A stretch of 64,000 nucleotides of DNA from Pseudomonas asgharzadehiana (GTDB lineage: Bacteria; Pseudomonadota; Gammaproteobacteria; Pseudomonadales; Pseudomonadaceae): assembly GCF_019139815.1 (NCBI RefSeq), contig NZ_CP077079.1, positions 434,001 through 498,000 of the forward strand, in the 5' to 3' direction. Both the position numbers and the translations under genes were made by a program. Below the pieces are notes generated by a model that was not told the DNA's origin, made no database searches, and worked only from the letters and a program-made list of their open reading frames with translations. How positions within the stretch are numbered: position 1 is the first letter of the stretch; every line of letters starts with the position of its first letter. Positions 52,177-63,753 of the stretch are shown piece after piece.

Positions 52177-52198
52177 TGGTGCGGCACCAAGAGTCGAA
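52177..52198 (-). other. Left attachment remnant (decayed tRNA 3' end)
   Basis: TGGTGCGGCACCAAGAGTCG then AA matches the right-end tRNA-Thr 3' sequence with one base missing and one substitution over 23 positions. It sits 11 bases from a tRNA-type terminator. It may be the 3' fragment displaced by island insertion. Confidence 0.6.
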
Positions 52199-52505
52199 TA
52201 TATCTTATATACATATGATTTATATGAATTTTATTTAGCTATTCAAATCGGATTACCCCTTTGAATACCCTTGATCCCGGCAGTGGTCGAATATATTTTG
52301 TGCACCTGTTTTTCAGCTATGCCTAACCGTATTCGGATTACTCCCCAAGTATGAAATTTGAGCTGTATTTCAACGGACAAAAGACAGGAAACGGCCAAAA
52401 TTAGCCAGTGGAGCGGCTGAGCTGCGCTACTGCAGGTGTCTGTCAGATGGCGAAATGCCCTGCACTCCGGTTAGGATGAAAAAAAACTTCAGGGAGGGAA
52501 GGCGC
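52199..52505. other. A/T-rich left arm of the island
   Basis: About 300 bases without a supported gene. The decamer TCGAATATAT occurs at 52194-52203 and again at 52287-52296, which might be an integrase arm site. TTGATC (52271-52276) and TATATT (52292-52297) are a weak promoter candidate. AGGGAGGG at 52491 is the ribosome site of the next gene. Confidence 0.5.
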
Positions 52506-55394
52506 ATGAGTCAGTATCTATTGAGCTTTGCCAAAAGCCACTTGGATGGCAAATCGGATGGCTATCTGGCCCTTCTCTGGTGCATGGCCAAGGCGAGCCA
52601 GGATCGCGGACGCTATTCTGATCACATCAAGTCCTATCTCGCGTCGAACGCTGACCAACTGCTGAACACTAATTTTCAGCGTATCGGTGCATTGTTCAAA
52701 AGGGGGCTGGAGTCTAGGCCAGAACTGGACTGGGTGGCACCCTCAGGCCTCAGTCCTTTACTGGATTTGCAGGTCAAAAATTTCAGAGGCTTTGGCGAGT
52801 TGTCTGCGGATGACAGGGGAAGCTTTCTGCGTTTTAGCAAAATGAAGAACATCTTCTACGCACCTAATGGAGGGGGGAAGTCTTCGCTTTGTGAGGCGAT
52901 TGAGTATGGCACGACCGGGCATATCAAAGAGGCAGATCGCCGGAAAACGAAGGTAAAGGCCTATATTGCTAGGGATAGTGCAAAACCGACGCTGTCGTTG
53001 GTGGGCCGGGACAGAAAAGCCGTGACTAAGAGCCTAGCTTGGTCAGCTTGCTTCATTGATCGCAACCGTCTGCAAGAGTTCTCGTTGCTTGGCTCTAAGG
53101 ATACGGGGAGCGCTGAAAGCGACGTAGTGGCCAGCCTCTTCGGCCTCGAAGAGTTCCAAGAGATCATTGGACGGTTCGTGAAACCGGAGAGCTTCAATCT
53201 CACCCTGTACTTGAAGCCAGACCAGGCCGAAGCGTTGACCGAAGTTGAATTAGACCGGAAAGGCCTCCTTGCCGAGCGCCAGGATCATTTCAACCGCATA
53301 ACTGAGATCAATGACCAAGTATGCGAGACGCTCGGTTTGCAGTCGGATCAGCAATCTGCTGTTCGGATTAGATTTTTGCGGCTGAAGAGCGAGATCGAGC
53401 ACAAGATCCGTAAGTCAGAGCAACTCAAGCTTGCAGAAGCTCCGGTCGTTGATTCTTTCGAACGAATTAAGCGTGCGGCGCGTGCCGCCCGCTACCTCCT
53501 TGCCCGAAAGTCGATGATCGAAGCCTTGTTTTTAAAAAGTGCCAAGGACGTGAACTACGAAGCCATTTACTTGGCCATCCAAGACCTGGGTCAAGTGGAA
53601 GGCAGTGACACCTGTCCAGCATGTTCTACTCCGTTGCAACGCGTTGTGGAGAACCCCTTTGAAAAGGCAAAGCGAGAGCTTCATACCTTAGGCCGACTGG
53701 AGCGTTTAAGGGCCGCTAACCAGCGTAATGACGAGAGGATTCTTCAAATCGTCAGAGAAATTGCCAACGGGCTTGCGGGAATCGAAAAGAACACCCGGTT
53801 GGATGTCCCTTGCCGTCTTCACCTAAACGACCTCAAAAGCGAACTGGCCAACTTCCAGGCGTCCACCGACCGAGGAGCGCGTGCGGTGTCCGTGCTAAGT
53901 CACTTCGTCTCGCTTGTTAGAGAAGAGACCGCCGAAATCGAGACCTACCTGCAGGCTTGTACACTGAAGAGCGAAGTGTTCGCGCAAACTTCGGAGGCTG
54001 TCTCCCGTCTGGGCAGAGCGGTCGAGGTACTACAACAGACGCAAGATGCAATCAAAGATCTATTTGGTGCCAAAAAAACCTGCAAAAAACTGATTGAGAC
54101 TGCAGGCGAAAAGATCGCGCGACTCATTGATCGACGAAATATTTTAAAACGTGATGACGCCGATACGGCTCGATTCAATACCCTCATTCGTCAATTGCAG
54201 GATGAGTACGGCAACCTCTATCAAGATCTGCTGGAGTACAAACTTCACCTTGAGAAGACACGTATCACCGGGATCGAGACGAAGGCGGCTGAGTACTACA
54301 AAGCCATCAACGATCATGACGATGAGCATGAGCGTATTGATGCTATCCGCTTCGAGAAGATCAACGACAGCTATCGAATCAAGATCAACGCTGCGAACGG
54401 CACAGTGCAGGACGCTTTCTCGGTATTGAGCGAAGGGCACCTTCGCGTGCTCGGCCTTTCGCTTCTGCTGGCAATGGCAGAGAAAAATATGCTCCCGCTG
54501 ATTGTGTTCGACGACGTCGTGAACGCGATCGACAGCGACCATCGCTCGAACATCATCGACCTGTTTTTCTCTGACCCTTACCTTCGGCGTACTCAGATGG
54601 TCGTGACAACACATGACCGTCTGTTCTGGGAGCGCTTCTGCATCATCGCTGATCGGCACCCTCAGGCTGATCAGCACACAAGTTGCGTCTTGAGCTACAC
54701 GAACAGAGGCATCGTGGCGGTCGATCACTCAGGTGGATTTCAAGGCAAGGTGCATGAGGCGTTGCGCGTCTATGACGTGAGGCAGGCATTGATTTATTGC
54801 CGGATCTGGTTCGAGTCGATCGTGATCGAGTACTGTCTGGATAATGCCGTGGCGATCACAGCTCAGTTCGGCAAGTCTCAGTTAAAAAAGAACGTATATC
54901 TGCAGGTCAGTCTGGAGAGAACTTTCTCACTTATCGAGCCGCTGCTCGCTTACGATCCTGTCCACTTCAACCTGATCAAAAATGATCTGGTGAACTGGGC
55001 GGGTCAGAACCAGGAACACCACGCATTTGATGAGGGGAGCCTGAATTTCGTTCATTCAAAAACCAGTAAGGAAGTGGTCAGAGTCTACGATGCGATTCGC
55101 TTACTTGAATGCCAGCTTTTCCCTCTCAAGAAGAACATTGCTTGTAAGGTGTTTCTGGTTGAAGTGAACAATAAGATCGATCAGTGGGTGGCGAAGCTTG
55201 CCAAGCTCGCTCAGGCTCCAGAGGACGTGAAAAAGGACGCTGAGGCGCGCCTGAGACTCCTGCGCAGGCGGGCAGATGAGCTGACTCAGGAGCTAGCCTA
55301 CATCGCCGTCTGCCTAGCCGAGATGGCTAAACTAAATCTTCTGCCAAGCGGCCAGATGCATCCGGACGACGAGCTTCTGGAAGAGGGGGGCTAG
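52506..55394 (+). CDS. SMC/Rad50-like ATPase with zinc-hook motif and unassigned C-terminal domain
   Basis: A 962-residue ABC-type ATPase split by a coiled coil. Residues 1-95 are an unassigned helical domain; Walker A APNGGGKSS is at 119-127 (K125); a long coiled coil carries C370-P-A-C373, the zinc-hook CxxC of Rad50-like proteins; the signature LSEGH is at 641-645, Walker B LIVFDD ends at D670, and the H-loop is TTHD (H703). Residues 720-962 form an extra domain with R766-x3-E770, H838-H839 and H850, somewhat like the R/E/H pattern of PrrC/RloC anticodon nucleases, not proven. ATG 52506 has AGGGAGGG; a longer frame to 52455 lacks one. Likely defence ATPase, paired with the NACHT gene. Confidence 0.85.
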   Translation: MSQYLLSFAKSHLDGKSDGYLALLWCMAKASQDRGRYSDHIKSYLASNADQLLNTNFQRIGALFKRGLESRPELDWVAPSGLSPLLDLQVKNFRGFGELSADDRGSFLRFSKMKNIFYAPNGGGKSSLCEAIEYGTTGHIKEADRRKTKVKAYIARDSAKPTLSLVGRDRKAVTKSLAWSACFIDRNRLQEFSLLGSKDTGSAESDVVASLFGLEEFQEIIGRFVKPESFNLTLYLKPDQAEALTEVELDRKGLLAERQDHFNRITEINDQVCETLGLQSDQQSAVRIRFLRLKSEIEHKIRKSEQLKLAEAPVVDSFERIKRAARAARYLLARKSMIEALFLKSAKDVNYEAIYLAIQDLGQVEGSDTCPACSTPLQRVVENPFEKAKRELHTLGRLERLRAANQRNDERILQIVREIANGLAGIEKNTRLDVPCRLHLNDLKSELANFQASTDRGARAVSVLSHFVSLVREETAEIETYLQACTLKSEVFAQTSEAVSRLGRAVEVLQQTQDAIKDLFGAKKTCKKLIETAGEKIARLIDRRNILKRDDADTARFNTLIRQLQDEYGNLYQDLLEYKLHLEKTRITGIETKAAEYYKAINDHDDEHERIDAIRFEKINDSYRIKINAANGTVQDAFSVLSEGHLRVLGLSLLLAMAEKNMLPLIVFDDVVNAIDSDHRSNIIDLFFSDPYLRRTQMVVTTHDRLFWERFCIIADRHPQADQHTSCVLSYTNRGIVAVDHSGGFQGKVHEALRVYDVRQALIYCRIWFESIVIEYCLDNAVAITAQFGKSQLKKNVYLQVSLERTFSLIEPLLAYDPVHFNLIKNDLVNWAGQNQEHHAFDEGSLNFVHSKTSKEVVRVYDAIRLLECQLFPLKKNIACKVFLVEVNNKIDQWVAKLAKLAQAPEDVKKDAEARLRLLRRRADELTQELAYIAVCLAEMAKLNLLPSGQMHPDDELLEEGG

Positions 55395-55639
55395 GATGCA
55401 GATGTTCGCCTCCCCAAAGATTAGCGGCTACCAGAGGCCAGTGCCCAGCTAGAGTTGCGGAAAGAGCCATTCGAAGGAAACTCACGCCCCCCGATCACGG
55501 ACATATACCAGCGCCTGCGCACACCCAGCGTATCGGCGGTTTTTACGTGCTACGAATGACGCGCACCAACGTGTTCTTCCATGATGCATCATGGCTTGAG
55601 TACGTCGTGCGCCCCCGAAGATCCTCGACAGGAAAATAC

Positions 55640-58600
55640 ATGGCGACCAAGCCAAAGAAAAAAAACTCCAAGAATCGGACACGTCGCAATGCCGGCGGCG
55701 CTGCGACGGCGTCCGGGATGAACTTTCAGGCTGCTGTCACGGCGATCGCTGGGAGTCACTTGTTGCTTGGCGCATCGCTCGGGTGGCTTGACGGCTTGAT
55801 TGAGGATATCCCAACCGCGATCTGGGCCGAGACTGGCGGTCCGGGTGACGATATCCGGATTGAGTTGAGAAACGGCGAAGTTCTCGAAGCGCAGGTCAAG
55901 CGCGGTTTGAGTCGTGGCGAGAATTTGTGGGAGGCCATGCGAGCACTGGCGGTTGGTCTTGACGCAGGCACGATCCAGTACGGCGTCCTCATCGTTTCGC
56001 CCGACACGAGTAAGACCATCTGGACGGACTTGGCCAGAGATAACCGACGTCTTGGTGAAGGGCGCACCGACAACCTAAGCGATATCGGTCTGGAATGGCT
56101 CAGACGACTAACCGATGCCGCGCTGCCTGTGAACGAGGTGTGTGCCTGCCTCCGTATTCACGTTGTGCATGCATCGGATGCAGATCATGTCTCGGTGATG
56201 ATGGCTCGGGCCCGCCTGGCAAGCAGCTTCGCCAGCGCCTCCGATGCAGATAGCATTTGGTTCCGACTGTTACAAGACGCGCATGTAATCACAGAACGAC
56301 GCGGCCGCTGGGAACAAGCTGGCTTGGCTCAAATGCTGATGGGGATGGGGGTGCAAGCGAGTGCAGCCGCAACACCGGCAAGTGTCGCCCCCCGGGTCAG
56401 TTGCTGGGTCGCTGATTCTAACCAGCACTTTTCTTTGCTCGGTGTTAAAAACTCGCTTTCGATGGACAAGGCTTGGTTGCCTCTCAAAGCCGGTGTGGCG
56501 GATCCGGGCGAGCCAGAGCCCACTGATCCAGTCGCGGCCTTGGCACACTATCATGCTGCTTCCGGCGCCTCGCGTTCGAGGTGGAACAAACAAAAGACTC
56601 TAGAAGCCGAATGGGTCGGTCGGTTCTACACACGCGCCGTCGTGATCGGAGGACCGGGCATGGGCAAGAGCACGCTCATGACTCGGCTCGCTTGTCTATA
56701 TGCGCGCGATGGACTACCGGTCCTCAAGGTTCGCTTGCGGGATATTGCTGCTCGACTCGCCGCGGGCAACAGCTTCGATGAAAGCGTTTTGCAGTTGGGC
56801 TTGGATGGATCAGGAGTCCCGTTCCAACAGGTTCGCGACAGTTCGCTTGCCGACTGGGTTTTGCTATGCGATGGGCTAGACGAATGCGATGCACACCAAG
56901 AGCTGGTGGCAACACGCATCCGACAGTTTAGCGCAGGTAATCCGCGCGTCCGAATTATCGTAACGACTCGCCCAATTGGGTACCAGACTGGGGAACTATC
57001 GGAGTGGAGACACTACGAACTGATCGCTCCAGATGCCGAGCGAGGAGCGGAGAACTTAGCCAAGTTGTTACAGGCCGCCTCCCCCAAGCGCGCGGCGGAG
57101 GATTCTGACTGGGCCTTTGCTTTGGCGACCGAGCAATTGGAAGGTAACGCGGCGAAGGCCGTGATTTCGCAAAGTCCACAACTGTTAGGCATGGCCGCGT
57201 CCTTGCTAGCACGCGGTGGCACCTTGGGCACGTCCAAGACTGAGCTATATCAAAACCTCTTCGAGGTCATCGATGCTGAGCCAAACACCCGCAAAGCGCT
57301 GGATGATCAACCTGATTCAGCCGTGTTGGCCCGGGTCTTTGACATCGTTGGCTGGGAACTGATTGCTGACCCACTCGCCAAGACTTCTGATCTACTGACT
57401 CGAACTGCCATTCATCTTCGCGCGGATCTGGGCGTGATGCCGCTCAAGGCCAAGTCCATCGTCAACGCCGCTTTGAAGTACTGGCAGCAGGTAGGCCTGA
57501 TAGAGCAAGTGCGCCACGGAGCGACGACCTTGATCACGTTCGTTCACAAAACTTTTGCTGAGTTCGCTGCAGCAAGGTTCGTATGGACAAACCACGAGGC
57601 GACCGAACGTGCGCGCTGGTTATCTTCGTGCCTGGATGACTACGAACGTTGGAGCGAGGTGGTGGTCTTTGCCAGCGCCAAGATGTGCGAGGAAGTCCTG
57701 CAGGCTTTGCTGGTGCGGGTGGCGCAGGGGGATCGCCATGCACTCGAGCGGGCCTTGGGATTGTTGGTAGCAACCCCTGCCGGCGTGTTGGACGATACCG
57801 TCCAGCGTCTTGTGCAGTTGTCATTTGCGCAAGTTGACGCCGATAACACGGTGGTGGCTTACCGTTTCGGATTGCTTTTGGCACGACTTGTCACGCGATT
57901 TGAGCCAGTGATTGGCGCACTATCTAGGGCACGGTTGCATTCAACCCAACCCTGGACACAAAGGGTGGCGTGGGCATGTGAAGTCGAGATGGCCGAGTTC
58001 GATATCGATACAGCCCAAAACAAGCTGCACGAGTTTTTGGCAAGCAGCTCTCCATCGACGTCGATAAATTCAATGATGTCAATCAGTAGCTTGTCGCTCA
58101 GGCGGAACCCGGAAAACGAGCTCCACGAGAGCATGGCGCTAGCCTTAGTGCGACGCAGGTTAGCAGACCGTTCGGTCGATCAGCTTACTGCCTTGCTTAA
58201 GCTGTTTACTGACCAAGCCTTCGATACCGTCGGCTTCAGCATTAAGCTGAGTAAGCTTGCAAATCAGGCGGGTATGGAGCTGCCACATGTCCGGCATAAC
58301 CTGAGCGGTGACGCTCTCGCAGCGATGTTCCCCGCCGTCGAATACAGGCAAGCGCATACCACAGCCATGGATGCATTTCTCAGCACCCTGGCCACTCAGA
58401 ATGAATCCATTGGCAATGGGACAGCACTAGACCCAACGCTGCAACTGAGCGCGCTGTTCGAGATCACTGGATGGAACGAATCGCCCGCGTCGGATATCTG
58501 GTGGGCGATGAAGCCCGTCGACCGTGAGCCGATGCGTGAGGTCCTGCGTGGGATAATCGCACTTTCGGTAATTCACCCTGGACAGCTCCAGCTCGAGGCA

Positions 58601-59632
58601 GCGGCTGTGCGTGCACAAATTAAAGACGAACACGCAGATCCAGAAGCTTGGTTTATTCCCCACACCGTCGAAGTCGATGTCCCGGAACTGGACTGGAGTC
58701 GGGCAGGTTCCTTGGGGCTCGACCGCGCCAAGCTTGAGCATGCCGCCCTGCAACGGCCTCAATGGTTAGCGATATCGGCGACCAGACTACTTGAAAGTCT
58801 CGAGCCTCCGGACCCGGATCGGCTCGCCGATCTGCTCGCCAAGGCAACTGGCCTGGGAGTATTTACTGCCTGCCACCTCGCACGCCAGCAAGGCGAGATC
58901 GGCTTAAAGCTCCTGCTTGATCGTCTGGATGGTCCGATCACCTCCGGATTCGAACATCTTATAGGAGCACTCGCAAAAACCAGCACGACCTGGCCGCAGG
59001 TGGCTGACGGTGTGGGTAAGGCGATGCATGCGTCCAATGCACGCGTCGCGGTGGCGGCGGCGAGTTTGACGCTCAAGCACGTCAAAGGTGGGGGCGCGGT
59101 GCCTGAATCGATGTTGGAAGCGGCGTACCAGTATTGGTTGGCCCATGAAGAGCCCTATCCCGTGTCCTCGGGCACCGTTCCAGACAGTCCGAGGGAGACG
59201 CTTTTGGAGGCGATGAACTACCTTCGGCCGGTTTCAGATGAGCGGGCGGTCGAGCTACTCAATGATATGCGTCGCGATATGAAGGATTTAGCTCTGTCCT
59301 GGCTGATCCAGCGTGCCACTCGGTCTCCAATATCACGATCGAAGCTGGTCACATCCATGAGGGGAAAACTCCCCAATGCAGAGTCGGTTGCAAGATTGCT
59401 TGATTCGGAGATTGCCTTCGACGAGGCAGAGATATCGCAACTGTGCGATCTGTTTTCCGATGCCGATCCTGACTATCGGCTGGCTGCGTTGCGACTGATT
59501 AAGCCTCATCGAATGCCCAACGACCTGCTGACGGCGAAGCTCAAAGCACTAATGACCGACACATATTCCGATGTCGGCCGCACTGCGCGAACGCTGTGGG
59601 ATACCTTGGAAACCGATGGCGGCGTCGATTGA
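55640..59632 (+). CDS. NACHT NTPase with N-terminal putative nuclease and C-terminal helical repeats
   Basis: A 1330-residue STAND protein. After a Lys/Arg-rich start (residues 4-20), residues about 25-200 look like a PD-(D/E)xK nuclease of Mrr/Cap4 type: D70-D71 and Q85-V-K87 (QxK). The NACHT domain has Walker A GGPGMGKSTL (K343), Walker B LLCDGLDECD (D411, D414, E415), sensor IIVTTRP and the closing FVHKTFAEFAAARF near 636-648. From about 650 to the end it is helical, HEAT-like. Bacterial NACHT proteins sense phage components and kill the cell through the N-terminal effector. ATG 55640 has AGGA 6 bases upstream; the open frame to 55547 is weak. No transmembrane segment. Confidence 0.88.
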   Translation: MATKPKKKNSKNRTRRNAGGAATASGMNFQAAVTAIAGSHLLLGASLGWLDGLIEDIPTAIWAETGGPGDDIRIELRNGEVLEAQVKRGLSRGENLWEAMRALAVGLDAGTIQYGVLIVSPDTSKTIWTDLARDNRRLGEGRTDNLSDIGLEWLRRLTDAALPVNEVCACLRIHVVHASDADHVSVMMARARLASSFASASDADSIWFRLLQDAHVITERRGRWEQAGLAQMLMGMGVQASAAATPASVAPRVSCWVADSNQHFSLLGVKNSLSMDKAWLPLKAGVADPGEPEPTDPVAALAHYHAASGASRSRWNKQKTLEAEWVGRFYTRAVVIGGPGMGKSTLMTRLACLYARDGLPVLKVRLRDIAARLAAGNSFDESVLQLGLDGSGVPFQQVRDSSLADWVLLCDGLDECDAHQELVATRIRQFSAGNPRVRIIVTTRPIGYQTGELSEWRHYELIAPDAERGAENLAKLLQAASPKRAAEDSDWAFALATEQLEGNAAKAVISQSPQLLGMAASLLARGGTLGTSKTELYQNLFEVIDAEPNTRKALDDQPDSAVLARVFDIVGWELIADPLAKTSDLLTRTAIHLRADLGVMPLKAKSIVNAALKYWQQVGLIEQVRHGATTLITFVHKTFAEFAAARFVWTNHEATERARWLSSCLDDYERWSEVVVFASAKMCEEVLQALLVRVAQGDRHALERALGLLVATPAGVLDDTVQRLVQLSFAQVDADNTVVAYRFGLLLARLVTRFEPVIGALSRARLHSTQPWTQRVAWACEVEMAEFDIDTAQNKLHEFLASSSPSTSINSMMSISSLSLRRNPENELHESMALALVRRRLADRSVDQLTALLKLFTDQAFDTVGFSIKLSKLANQAGMELPHVRHNLSGDALAAMFPAVEYRQAHTTAMDAFLSTLATQNESIGNGTALDPTLQLSALFEITGWNESPASDIWWAMKPVDREPMREVLRGIIALSVIHPGQLQLEAAAVRAQIKDEHADPEAWFIPHTVEVDVPELDWSRAGSLGLDRAKLEHAALQRPQWLAISATRLLESLEPPDPDRLADLLAKATGLGVFTACHLARQQGEIGLKLLLDRLDGPITSGFEHLIGALAKTSTTWPQVADGVGKAMHASNARVAVAAASLTLKHVKGGGAVPESMLEAAYQYWLAHEEPYPVSSGTVPDSPRETLLEAMNYLRPVSDERAVELLNDMRRDMKDLALSWLIQRATRSPISRSKLVTSMRGKLPNAESVARLLDSEIAFDEAEISQLCDLFSDADPDYRLAALRLIKPHRMPNDLLTAKLKALMTDTYSDVGRTARTLWDTLETDGGVD

Positions 59633-60338: not shown

Positions 60339-61310
60339 CTACCCACCGATATAGGCAGCGACCACATCGATCCGACCGTGCCCCAGCTCATAGCTGATTT
60401 TCTTTCGGGCATTACGATCAAGGTACCTATCTATCTCGCAGCATCGACCGCCATTGATAGGCGCTCGGTGCTGGGTAATCCGCTCATAGCGCTCACATGC
60501 GTAAGCAGCTCGCAGTTCATGAAAACCTTTGAGGTTGTGTGCATGGAGAATGTCCCTCGAGGGGCGGACGATGTCCTGCAGAACGTTCAGAAAGCGTTCA
60601 TTTGGTGCAATCAGGTTTCGGCTACCCACTGGCGAAACCTGCGCCGCAAATCCAAGCGCATCGCGAACATGCTGATCTACCGCAATCCAGCGAGACGCTG
60701 AAATACCGGCACGGCCGCCTTTGGTACCGTCCTGAATGCTGATCTTGCCGAGGTCTTTAGCCTCCCGGCATAGCCGTGGAAGGTCAGCCAAGATGGCCTC
60801 ATGCAAGCGTATGCCAATGGCGCGAGCCAATTGAGCGATGGCAGCAGCACGTGGCATCTGGTGCTCGCAGAGAGCGTCGACTAACCGCTTCACAAGTTCG
60901 CGGTCTTGGCCTTGAGGTGCCGAGCGGCGAATACCGGTTCGTTGCATCCTCAATGCCTTGCTCGGGCTCGTCACTTTCACATATTGATCACCTCGAAGGG
61001 CCGCCATGGTTCGGTTCACGCTGGACAATCGGTTTTGCGCGGTGGCGATGGCGAGCTCACCTTGTTCAACTTGCCGCAGATGTCTGGCGTAATCCAGCAA
61101 AGTCTGCCGAACAATCTGACGAGCATCGTTAAACCTGGATCCATCTTCCGACCGACACCAGCGCACAAACGCCTGCCAGCGATCCCTGTGTGCTTTGACC
61201 GTGCCGTAATGCCCGCCGCCAAACAGATCTTTCAAGGCCTTTGGCCCGGCATAGCTCAACTGCCGACCGTAGCCAAAATTGCGTCCGTCTCGCCTGCCCA
61301 CCAGTGCCAT
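60339..61310 (-). CDS. Tyrosine recombinase of the integrase-domain island family
   Basis: A 323-residue tyrosine recombinase with an N-terminal SAM-like DNA-binding domain (about 25-105, TVKAHRDRWQAFVRWCRSED) and a catalytic domain holding Arg in ARAIGIRLHEAIL, H-x-x-R in GFHELRAAYACE, a second His in ELGHGRIDVV, and the nucleophile Tyr in AAYIGG at the very C-terminus. Such genes occur in Pseudomonas islands separate from the main integrase. Together with its small partner it may move the cargo or be a relic. Confidence 0.85.
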   Translation of the reverse strand: MALVGRRDGRNFGYGRQLSYAGPKALKDLFGGGHYGTVKAHRDRWQAFVRWCRSEDGSRFNDARQIVRQTLLDYARHLRQVEQGELAIATAQNRLSSVNRTMAALRGDQYVKVTSPSKALRMQRTGIRRSAPQGQDRELVKRLVDALCEHQMPRAAAIAQLARAIGIRLHEAILADLPRLCREAKDLGKISIQDGTKGGRAGISASRWIAVDQHVRDALGFAAQVSPVGSRNLIAPNERFLNVLQDIVRPSRDILHAHNLKGFHELRAAYACERYERITQHRAPINGGRCCEIDRYLDRNARKKISYELGHGRIDVVAAYIGG

Positions 61311-62214: not shown

Positions 62215-63543
62215 TTACCCACGTTTGGATGCGCCACGGCTATTTTGTAGGGCGGTAATGTTGTCGCCGACCGGGTGAGCGAATTCGTGGGGCGTCACAT
62301 GCCCATGGCGGTTGGCGTCGATGTAGTTGCTCCACCACGCCATGATCAGCCTGCGCTGCTCGAGGAATTCGGCCTTGTGGATATACGCGGCGCGCACGCG
62401 GTTGCGTTCCTTGTGGCTCATTTGTCTTTCGATGGCTGCGTCGGTCCATAACCCGGACTCAAGCAGGGCGCTACAGGCCATGGTCCTGAAGCCGTGGCCG
62501 CACACGTCCTTACTGGTGTCATAGCCGACGTTGCGGAGCATGGTGTTCACTGTGTTCTCGGACATGGGCTTCCAGTACTTGTGGTCGCCCGGTAGCACCA
62601 ACTCTGAAAAGCGACTGAGGCTGCGCAGGCGCTCCAGTATTTCGATGACCTGCGGCGATAACGGAACCATTTGAATGTCGCCGTTCATCTTGGTCCCGCG
62701 TGTGGAGTTGCGTACCCCTTCAATCGGTGCGCGAGTATCGGGGATTTCCCACATGGCGCGTTGGAGGTCGAACTCACTCCATCGAGCGAAGCGCAGCTCG
62801 CTGGAGCGGACGAATACATGCAACGTCAACAGGACGGCGAGGCGCGTCAGTTCGCGGCCGTTGTAGTTGTCGATACGGTGCAGCAGTTCGGGTAGGCGGT
62901 TGAGGGAGAGGGCCGGGCGATGGACTGTGCGCGGCGCGTGAATCGAGCCTGCCAGATCGAGGGCAGGATTCATGGTGATCTGCCGAGCCCTTTTGGCCCC
63001 GCGCATGATGGTGGATAAGTAGTTCTGTACCCTTAACGCCACATCCATGGTGCCGCGTTCCTTGATGCGCTGGGTGATCTCTAGCAGGTCGTGGGTATCG
63101 AGTTCGGCGATGGGGCGTTGGCCGATCAGCGGGAAGACGTGGGTGCGCAGTCGGCTCATCACGGTTTTTGCGTGTCCTTCGGTCCAGCGACGGGACATGT
63201 CGGCGTGCCACTCCAGAGCAACGGTTTCGAAAAGCAGTGCCGCCCGTTGGGCTACGATCTTGGCCTTCTTCTTTTCTTCCATTGGGTCGAGGTTGTCGAG
63301 CAGCAACGCCTTGGCTTCGTCTCGCTTACGTCGTGCGACGGAAAGGGTAACGATGGGGTAATTGCCGATGATGAGCGTGCCTTCCTTGCCGCTGGGCTTG
63401 GTGTACTTCAAGCGCCAGGTCTTCACGCCATTGGGTTTGACGAAAAGGTACATGCCTCGGCCGTCGAACAGTTTGTAGGCGCGTTCGCGGGCTTTGGCCG
63501 TGCGGCATTGCAGGTCGCTGAGGGGGATCGCTAGACGTGGCAT
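62215..63543 (-). CDS. P4-type tyrosine integrase
   Basis: A 442-residue integrase. N-terminal arm-binding domain (LFDGRGMYLFVKPNGVKTWR, typical DUF4102), core-binding domain, and catalytic domain with Arg in SSELRFARWSE, HGFRTMACS (HxxR), and Tyr in RAAYIHKAEFLEQRR. P4-type integrases insert islands at tRNA 3' ends; the tRNA-Thr fragment lies 166 bases upstream of its start, as expected. ATG 63543 opens MPRLAIPLSDLQCRTAKARE; the longer frame is not needed. Confidence 0.93.
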   Translation of the reverse strand: MPRLAIPLSDLQCRTAKARERAYKLFDGRGMYLFVKPNGVKTWRLKYTKPSGKEGTLIIGNYPIVTLSVARRKRDEAKALLLDNLDPMEEKKKAKIVAQRAALLFETVALEWHADMSRRWTEGHAKTVMSRLRTHVFPLIGQRPIAELDTHDLLEITQRIKERGTMDVALRVQNYLSTIMRGAKRARQITMNPALDLAGSIHAPRTVHRPALSLNRLPELLHRIDNYNGRELTRLAVLLTLHVFVRSSELRFARWSEFDLQRAMWEIPDTRAPIEGVRNSTRGTKMNGDIQMVPLSPQVIEILERLRSLSRFSELVLPGDHKYWKPMSENTVNTMLRNVGYDTSKDVCGHGFRTMACSALLESGLWTDAAIERQMSHKERNRVRAAYIHKAEFLEQRRLIMAWWSNYIDANRHGHVTPHEFAHPVGDNITALQNSRGASKRG

Positions 63544-63639
63544 AGGGGGTACGCGCTCCTGACCGGGAAATCGCAGTACCCCTAACATACCCTCGGGGAA
63601 GGGGGATTTTGTTGGATCCCGACGGAGGGTCCTGGAACG

Positions 63640-63665
63640 AAAAAACCCGCCAAAGGGCGGGTTTT
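63640..63665. terminator. Hairpin between the integrase and the tRNA fragment
   Basis: AACCCGCC and GGCGGGTT with T- and A-tracts on both strands; positioned as the terminator of the tRNA fragment read on the minus strand, 43 bases after its 3' end. Confidence 0.8.
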
Positions 63666-63708
63666 CGGGGCTTCCAGAGCATTCGGTGGAATGCAATGGA
63701 GCCTAATG

Positions 63709-63753
63709 TGGTGCCGGCACCAGGAGTCGAACCCGGGACCTACTGATTACAAG
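63709..63753 (-). tRNA. tRNA-Thr(TGT) 3' fragment, right attachment site
   Basis: On the minus strand the 45 bases read from the anticodon loop (CTTGTAA) through the T-arm (GGGTTCGACTCC) to the acceptor end and CCA, exactly as in Pseudomonas tRNA-Thr(TGT). The 5' half is missing: upstream bases do not form the D-arm or acceptor strand. The break at the anticodon loop is typical of tyrosine-integrase crossover. Confidence 0.85.

What the first reader, a model, noticed from the sequence alone, without database searches (positions are those of the whole stretch)
52506..59632. Candidate two-gene antiphage system: SMC/Rad50-like ATPase plus NACHT nuclease
Two large same-strand genes are the sole sizeable cargo of a tRNA island. 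One is a zinc-hook ABC ATPase and the other a NACHT protein with a putative nuclease at its N-terminus. Established knowledge: SMC-like ATPases (Lamassu, RloC) and NACHT proteins (bNACHT, Avs) each act in phage defence. I do not recall a catalogued system pairing the two. A sensor-plus-executor design with two ATPase switches is inference.
Basis: partly seen in the sequence, partly recalled or inferred. Interest (0 to 1): 0.88.

Follow-up and report, generated by a model that had tools for sequence, protein, structure and literature searches.

The report
Two unlinked defence genes sharing island
Two large genes sitting side by side on a mobile stretch of a Pseudomonas-type chromosome each look like a self-contained anti-phage gene, and their relatives elsewhere travel separately, so they are probably neighbours by chance rather than one new two-part system.

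Summary
The genes are real and much as described: a 962-aa Rad50-like ATPase with a zinc hook (52506-55394) and a 1330-aa NACHT protein with a Cap4-type nuclease-like N-terminus (55640-59632), on an island ending at a tRNA-Thr fragment. The pairing fails: 0 of 44 other loci of the ATPase family carry a NACHT relative, and 0 of 5 loci of NACHT relatives carry the ATPase. DNA homology to the two closest ATPase orthologues covers that gene plus about 120 bp upstream and stops before the NACHT gene. The ATPase is a solo mobile gene, seen beside Kiwa, on a viral contig and near R-M genes. It resembles the tRNase RloC (zinc hook, invariant C-terminal R-x3-E and His, helical domain with a non-significant HEPN fold match) but fails the RloC tests I could run. 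I read it as an uncatalogued RloC-like family, and the NACHT gene as a new member of the bNACHT/Avs-like kind. Against me: 9 of 43 ATPase loci have a divergent DUF4365 gene next door and one (L083) a nuclease-like P-loop gene upstream, so looser partnerships are not excluded. No phage test could be run.

The parts
52178..52200 (.). probable left end: decayed copy of the tRNA-Thr 3' end
   Evidence: seen by eye; not found by the 3-mismatch search (it needs a deletion), so tentative
52379..55409 (+). probable mobile unit: DNA block shared with the ATPase loci L054 and L055; ends before the NACHT gene
   Evidence: blastn 90.2% over 52388-55355 (L054), 88.6% over 52379-55409 (L055)
52506..55394 (+). 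gene 1: Rad50-like ABC ATPase with zinc hook and C-terminal helical domain, 962 aa
52863..52883 (+). gene 1 Walker A (residues 120-126)
   Evidence: pattern present in 45 of 45 family rows
53613..53624 (+). gene 1 zinc hook CPAC (residues 370-373)
   Evidence: CPxC in 45 of 45 rows; C370, P371, C373 invariant in A5, 42 rows
54711..55334 (+). gene 1 C-terminal all-helical domain (residues 736-943), putative HEPN-like RNase; R766-x3-E770, H839, H850
   Evidence: the HEPN assignment is inference
55640..59632 (+). gene 2: NACHT STAND NTPase with nuclease-like N-terminus, 1330 aa
55679..56359 (+). gene 2 N-terminal Cap4-type PD-(D/E)XK-like domain (D70-D71 ... Q85-x-K87)
   Evidence: residues invariant in 5 of 5 rows; hhalign to PDC-M54A-type N-termini Prob 99
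56648..56884 (+). gene 2 NACHT core: Walker A (337-345) to LLCDGLDE (408-415)
60339..61310 (-). Integrase_1 / XerC-like recombinase of the island
62215..63696 (-). tyrosine integrase of the island, next to the attachment site
63710..63753 (-). 3' fragment of tRNA-Thr(TGT), right attachment site

Best explanation
The locus holds two independent stand-alone defence-type genes that were captured side by side in one tRNA-Thr island. Gene 1 works like RloC: a Rad50-like ATPase with a zinc-hook coiled coil senses altered or broken DNA during infection and releases a C-terminal helical, probably HEPN-type RNase that stops translation. Gene 2 works like other bNACHT/Avs proteins: the long C-terminal part senses a phage product, the NACHT core oligomerises, and the N-terminal Cap4-type nuclease cuts DNA, halting the infected cell. 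Shown here: gene anatomy, invariant residues, separate inheritance, solo gene-1 contexts in several phyla. Inferred: defence function, triggers, both catalytic activities, and that the C-terminal domain of gene 1 is an RNase.
For: Separate inheritance: NACHT relative (tblastn E<=1e-5) in 0 of 44 other ATPase-family loci and ATPase in 0 of 5 NACHT-relative loci; in two family-level searches of 398 genomes each, 28 have an ATPase match and 2 a NACHT match, only the window's own genome having both. The N-terminal nuclease profile of gene 2 rings (E<=0.01) in no ORF of those 44 loci. DNA homology to the orthologues at 91% and 89% protein identity stops at the ATPase gene. Gene 1 is followed by KwaA and KwaB in L039/L054, lies on a viral contig in L052, and 118 sampled neighbour ORFs include type III and IIG R-M, type I specificity, PifA and Tmn matches (no control set was run). 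RloC-like anatomy: zinc hook 45 of 45, C-terminal R-x3-E 45 of 45 (its pattern was one of two used in the search, so biased), QNQE-x-H-x-F-x-E-x3-N-x2-H 45 of 45; helical C-terminal model with that loop between helices; both chains of 2q00, listed as HEPN-T in PMC3710099, have prob 0.94/0.91 and TMt 0.63/0.59 over 130 columns. Gene 2; bNACHT25 and bNACHT32 with a PD-(D/E)XK DNase are reported to protect and to need it (PMC12169576, passages).
Against: HEPN is not statistically shown: 2q00 has Foldseek E 1.1, none of 299 matches reaches 0.001, and another chain with no HEPN label, 6b87, scores prob 0.97 and TMt 0.60 over 89 columns; the viral library gives nothing at 0.001 either; Pfam and PDB profiles give no nuclease for the domain; hhalign of the C-terminal domain to RloC's gives Prob 0.1. 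Hints of partnership: 9 of 43 loci have a divergent DUF4365 gene, and L083 has an upstream P-loop gene with a weak endonuclease-effector match. No terminator was predicted in the 245-bp gap between the genes, so co-transcription is possible. In 9 of the 44 loci the sequence held ends within 7 kb on at least one side. Only 5 NACHT-relative loci were found, one of them a fragment at a contig end.
Confidence: 0.7

Rival explanations
1. A genuine two-gene system: the ATPase senses and the NACHT nuclease executes.
For: Same strand, 245-bp gap, no predicted terminator between; sole sizeable cargo of one island. Other nuclease-like genes lie beside the ATPase elsewhere: DUF4365 in 9 of 43 loci, a P-loop gene with a weak endonuclease-effector match in L083.
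Against: 0 of 44 ATPase-family loci have the NACHT relative, 0 of 5 the reverse; the DNA homology unit excludes the NACHT gene; close orthologues lie next to Kiwa or other genes.
Confidence: 0.1
2. A Lamassu variant: gene 1 is LmuB and gene 2 a NACHT-fused LmuA with a Cap4 effector.
For: Best PADLOC matches of gene 1 are LmuB models: 2.9e-19, and 4e-19 for one of 611 positions that aligns from 17 to 586 with residues 123-722 of the longest ORF of gene 1. Lamassu effectors can carry Cap4 (PMC10586767, passages).
Against: The about 890-aa sister ATPases match LmuB models as well (5 of 5 scanned), so the match marks the shared head and coiled coil. Gene 1 is 962 aa against about 650, with a further C-terminal domain of about 200 aa; the residue after the Walker B aspartate is D (D670), where LmuB usually has Q. 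No LmuA or LmuC match in gene 2 at E<=1.
Confidence: 0.04
3. Gene 1 is simply an RloC anticodon nuclease.
For: Rad50-like ABC head, CxxC hook, C-terminal R-x3-E and His, DD Walker B like the 14 RloC-type proteins found in the same genus.
Against: Conserved His at spacing 68 and 79, not 36-52 (one His at spacing 49, H820, is not conserved); AAA_13 9.8 bits against a cut-off of 36; hhalign to the 14 comparators only over 88 columns around the ABC signature and Walker B, C-terminal domain Prob 0.1.
Confidence: 0.12
4. The C-terminal domain of gene 1 is not an enzyme but a binding or dimerisation module, and an unknown partner does the killing.
For: No significant fold or sequence match to any nuclease; the invariant loop has low model confidence.
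Against: Charged and polar invariants (R766, E770, H839, E843, N847, H850, S854, E856) across Pseudomonadota, Bacillota and one Bacteroidota row look catalytic.
Confidence: 0.25

Closest known systems
RloC (zinc-hook ABC ATPase with C-terminal anticodon nuclease)
   Same: Rad50-like head, CxxC zinc hook, C-terminal region with R-x3-E and an invariant His, genes rarely linked to one partner
   Different: Longer (902-967 aa in 44 of 45 rows, 1049 in L080, against 658-897 in the paper), a helical region of about 80 aa before the ATPase (not compared with RloC), His spacing 68/79, no AAA_13 match, no profile similarity in the C-terminal domain
About 890-aa ABC ATPase family found here (L021-L036)
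   Same: hhalign Prob 100 over 651 columns: sister family in the head and coiled coil
   Different: C-terminal domain not alignable (hhalign Prob 0.2), though it too shows an R-x3-E and a later His by eye
Lamassu LmuB
   Same: SMC/Rad50-like head and coiled coil (PADLOC 4e-19 over most of a 611-position model), zinc hook, defence context
   Different: LmuB lacks the C-terminal domain, is about 650 aa, usually has Q after the Walker B aspartate, and has LmuA/LmuC partners
bNACHT proteins such as bNACHT25, and Avs
   Same: N-terminal PD-(D/E)XK-type nuclease, central NACHT, C-terminal sensor-like part
   Different: Clade not assigned; not compared by sequence with any named bNACHT or Avs; no PADLOC model matches beyond the N-terminal region except a marginal GajB stretch
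PADLOC PDC-M54A
   Same: N-terminal nuclease-like domain (hhalign Prob 99)
   Different: About 1620 aa; best PADLOC stretch limited to residues 41-125 of the longest ORF of gene 2

Membership tests
RloC | Rad50-like ABC head with CxxC zinc hook | tested here: met
   CPxC in 45 of 45 rows; best fold matches are Rad50 and SMC heads
RloC | C-terminal R-x3-E-x36-52-His (definition read in PMC2610378) | tested here: not met
   conserved His at spacing 68 and 79; H820 at spacing 49 is not conserved. The motif as R-x3-E-x36-44-SH is in 14 of 14 AAA_13 comparators
RloC | Pfam AAA_13 (the link of this Pfam family to PrrC/RloC is recalled; one search agrees) | tested here: not met
   9.8 bits, cut-off 36
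RloC | Cleaves tRNA anticodon loops | not testable with these tools
   needs tRNA sequencing
HEPN superfamily | Helical bundle, acidic residue in helix 2, Rx4-6H at the helix 3 to 4 loop | tested here: inconclusive
   topology fits by eye, HEPN structure 2q00 at prob 0.94, TMt 0.63 but E 1.1; Rx4-6H not evident
Lamassu | LmuB of about 650 aa next to LmuA (and usually LmuC) | tested here: not met
   gene 1 matches LmuB over head and coiled coil but is 962 aa; no LmuA or LmuC match in gene 2
bNACHT / Avs-like STAND | Central NACHT with intact Walker A and B | tested here: met
   motifs invariant in 4 of 4 rows (window and three relatives); Pfam NACHT 26.2 bits, just under its 26.7 cut-off
bNACHT / Avs-like STAND | N-terminal effector domain | tested here: met
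   Cap4-type motifs in 5 of 5 rows; Prob 99 to PDC-M54A-type N-termini, Prob 43 directly to Cap4; Pfam Cap4_nuclease only in 1 of 5 rows at E 0.26
bNACHT / Avs-like STAND | Phage protection | not testable with these tools
   needs plaque assays
Two-gene ATPase plus NACHT system | Genes co-occur next to each other in unrelated genomes | tested here: not met
   0 of 44 and 0 of 5

The most novel reading that the evidence does not exclude
The zinc-hook ATPase is a shared DNA-damage module that pairs loosely, in trans or through swapped neighbours, with different nuclease-plus-sensor proteins: NACHT here, a divergent DUF4365 protein in 9 of 43 loci, a P-loop protein with an endonuclease-effector-like N-terminus in L083; such swapping would look like the absence of any fixed partner.
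Probability: 0.08. Interest if true: 0.65.

Novelty: new variant of a known kind. Interest (0 to 1): 0.38.

Why it matters
It removes a false two-gene system before anyone builds on it, and points to a mobile, RloC-like ATPase family found in Pseudomonadota, Bacillota and one Bacteroidota genome for which the 2023 PADLOC models scanned here hold only distant matches (best 67 bits). If its C-terminal domain is an RNase, it is a further zinc-hook ATPase-RNase lineage with its own active-site layout, which would make the question of how a Rad50-like sensor switches on an RNase testable in a new protein.

Tried and rejected
Pairing by genome search: rejected. Lamassu and plain RloC: rejected on the tests listed. 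Single-protein scans found nothing; alignment queries did better. Scanning with the N-terminal domain of the NACHT protein alone returned only the contig already known. Wider NACHT searches gave 1 of 369 class-level and 3 of 398 phylum-level genomes, the window's own included in both; no phage record matched. A possible fixed partner of one NACHT relative (a 618-aa ORF overlapping it in L100) matched no other NACHT locus. Promoter scans were uninformative. Profile comparisons of the C-terminal domain of gene 1 with the sister family and with RloC gave no support. hhalign E-values are for one comparison only, so I quote Prob. Literature: the titles and abstract starts listed name no paired ATPase-NACHT system and no family that I can identify with this ATPase. 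Of the listed papers I opened passages of four (PMC2610378, PMC3710099, PMC10586767, PMC12169576); subscription journals are mostly not held, so this is weak evidence of absence.

Full report
Observation. The window is G000:C1:434001-498000 of a 6.1-Mb single-contig genome. Both genes are there: 52506-55394 and 55640-59632, + strand, 245 bp apart. Between the likely ends at about 52.18 and 63.75 kb only an Integrase_1 recombinase, a tyrosine integrase and small ORFs remain. No tRNA gene lies in the window, but a tRNA-Thr(TGT) 3' fragment lies at 63710-63753 and the intact gene at G000:C1:530118-530193. Between them lies a P2-like prophage: of ten ORFs scanned there, five match terminase, P2-type capsid, minor tail, baseplate and tail-fibre families. 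So two elements stand in tandem at this tRNA. The left end is seen by eye only.

Gene 1. Pfam finds SMC_N, AAA_23 and AAA_21 above their cut-offs. The model of the whole protein (mean pLDDT 79.9) matches Rad50 and SMC heads. I collected 43 relatives from the species-level genome collection and one from a viral contig. Identity to the window protein runs from 31% (distant rows from Bacteroidota, Bacillota and enterobacteria, 31-33%) to 91% (42 rows). All 45 rows, window included, have Walker A, the CPxC hook, LSEGH, and a C-terminal YCRxWFE and QNQE-x-H-x-F-x-E-x3-N-x2-H; FDDVxNAID is in 44. YCRIWFE was one of the two search patterns, so its conservation is biased; the second motif was not a pattern.

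The C-terminal domain (residues 736-943) is modelled as all helical, mean pLDDT 78.9, with the invariant loop at low confidence. R766 and E770 sit in the second helix, the invariant His residues in a loop before the last helices. [quoted passage not shown] The fold search gave no significant match (0 of 299 at E 0.001). Among the 50 rows shown, the two chains of 2q00, listed as HEPN-T in that paper, had prob 0.94 and 0.91 and TMt 0.63 and 0.59 at E 1.1; 6b87, which I have no reason to call HEPN, had prob 0.97 and TMt 0.60 over fewer columns. I call HEPN-like RNase an inference.

RloC test. PMC2610378 (abstract and passages) describes RloC by R-x3-E-x36-52-His. A search of 149 genus-level genomes with Pfam AAA_13 gave 24 genomes with matches. 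The 14 proteins with matches over nearly the whole family (L110-L123) all have CxxC and R-x3-E-x36-44-SH. Against their alignment gene 1 aligns over only 88 columns around the ABC signature and Walker B (Prob 98), and the C-terminal domains do not align (Prob 0.1). So it works like RloC by anatomy but is not filed as RloC. Its nearest kin is a family of about 890 aa (16 loci, L021-L036; Prob 100 over 651 columns). Both families also match PADLOC's LmuB models over head and coiled coil.

Gene 2. Relatives over most or all of the length: L050 (29%), L051 on a Rhizobium plasmid (33%), L053 (27%) and L098/L100, one genome (31%); L099 is a C-terminal piece at a contig end. Walker motifs are invariant in the four-row alignment. 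The N-terminal D70-D71 and Q85-x-K87 are invariant in 5 of 5 rows. hhalign links this domain to five PDC-M54A-type N-termini (Prob 99), which link to five Cap4 proteins (Prob 93); the direct link to Cap4 is Prob 43, and Pfam Cap4_nuclease appears in only 1 of 5 rows, at E 0.26. PMC12169576 (passages) reports that bNACHT25 and bNACHT32 carry a PD-(D/E)XK DNase and need it for protection.

Are they a pair? In two family-level searches of 398 genomes each (by their handles apparently one draw), 28 have an ATPase match and 2 a NACHT match at E 1e-10; only the window's own has both. Ten full-length orthologues at 56-91% have no NACHT relative in stretches of about 18-20 kb; 8 of these 10 have the contig lengths of loci, so only two are extra. 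In 44 loci with up to 8 kb each side there is none at E 1e-5; in the NACHT loci there is no ATPase, L100 included. Nine of the 44 loci hold under 7 kb on one or both sides (L060, L062, L064, L071, L072, L074, L076, L082, L091). DNA homology to the two closest orthologues covers the ATPase gene and about 120 bp upstream, then stops. That block looks like the unit that moves.

What stands next to gene 1 instead: KwaA and KwaB (L039/L054); in L052, ORFs that I read by eye as phage genes, not scanned; R-M genes, PifA and Tmn among 118 sampled neighbours (first 25 of 191 matching families shown, no control). The most frequent neighbour is a divergent 1321-aa gene with an N-terminal DUF4365 domain (49 bits) and sub-threshold TPR matches, in 9 of 43 loci (in three pieces in L066). 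DUF4365 is called a nuclease domain in the abstract start of PMC10810196 (listing). It clusters on the tree (3 changes against a shuffled mean of 8.4). In L083, placed beside two of these loci (fork support 92/73), the space holds an 878-aa protein with a P-loop and LLLVIDDVW whose N-terminus matches a PADLOC 'Effector, Endonuclease' model (1.5e-7) and LmuA (3.2e-4) but hardly the Cap4 proteins or gene 2 (Prob 4 and 16). This is the best evidence against my reading: nuclease-like genes do recur beside this ATPase, in different families. In defence-rich DNA that may be chance. A small check found gene 2's type of N-terminus, PDC-M54A's or Cap4's in no ORF of the 44 loci at E 0.01, which also shows that those profiles miss L083.

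Verdict. What is left is one RloC-like solo family without a close model in the libraries scanned, and one further bNACHT-like protein.

Noticed in passing
window 63754 to the right edge, continuing to G000:C1:530118 (L002, L003): A P2-like prophage abuts the island at the same tRNA-Thr; next to an ORF with a weak integrase match it carries a KAP-family P-loop NTPase (L002:13979-15322, minus strand), a possible phage-borne defence gene.
   Followed up: partly
L064, L065, L066, L067, L068, L069, L073, L078, L090: A 1321-aa DUF4365 gene lies divergently next to the ATPase in 9 of 43 loci (in three pieces in L066): a candidate partner or fellow traveller.
   Followed up: partly
L083:3845-10868: Same-strand row of an 878-aa P-loop protein with an endonuclease-effector-like N-terminus (weak), a 302-aa gene and the ATPase.
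   Followed up: partly
L053:3788-11942: Two NACHT-type proteins of 1192 and 1339 aa in tandem; the first shows the same kind of N-terminal DD...QVK motif.
   Followed up: partly
L100:7597-13450 (minus strand): A NACHT relative whose end overlaps a 618-aa ORF with a cysteine-rich motif; the ORF is not found at the other NACHT loci.
   Followed up: partly
L021-L036: Sixteen ABC ATPases of 862-935 aa in the same bacterial family, sister to gene 1, with their own C-terminal R-x3-E and a later His.
   Followed up: partly
L049:5794-6561 (minus strand): A 255-aa ORF whose first 247 residues are 69% identical to the N-terminus of gene 1: a truncated copy.
   Followed up: no
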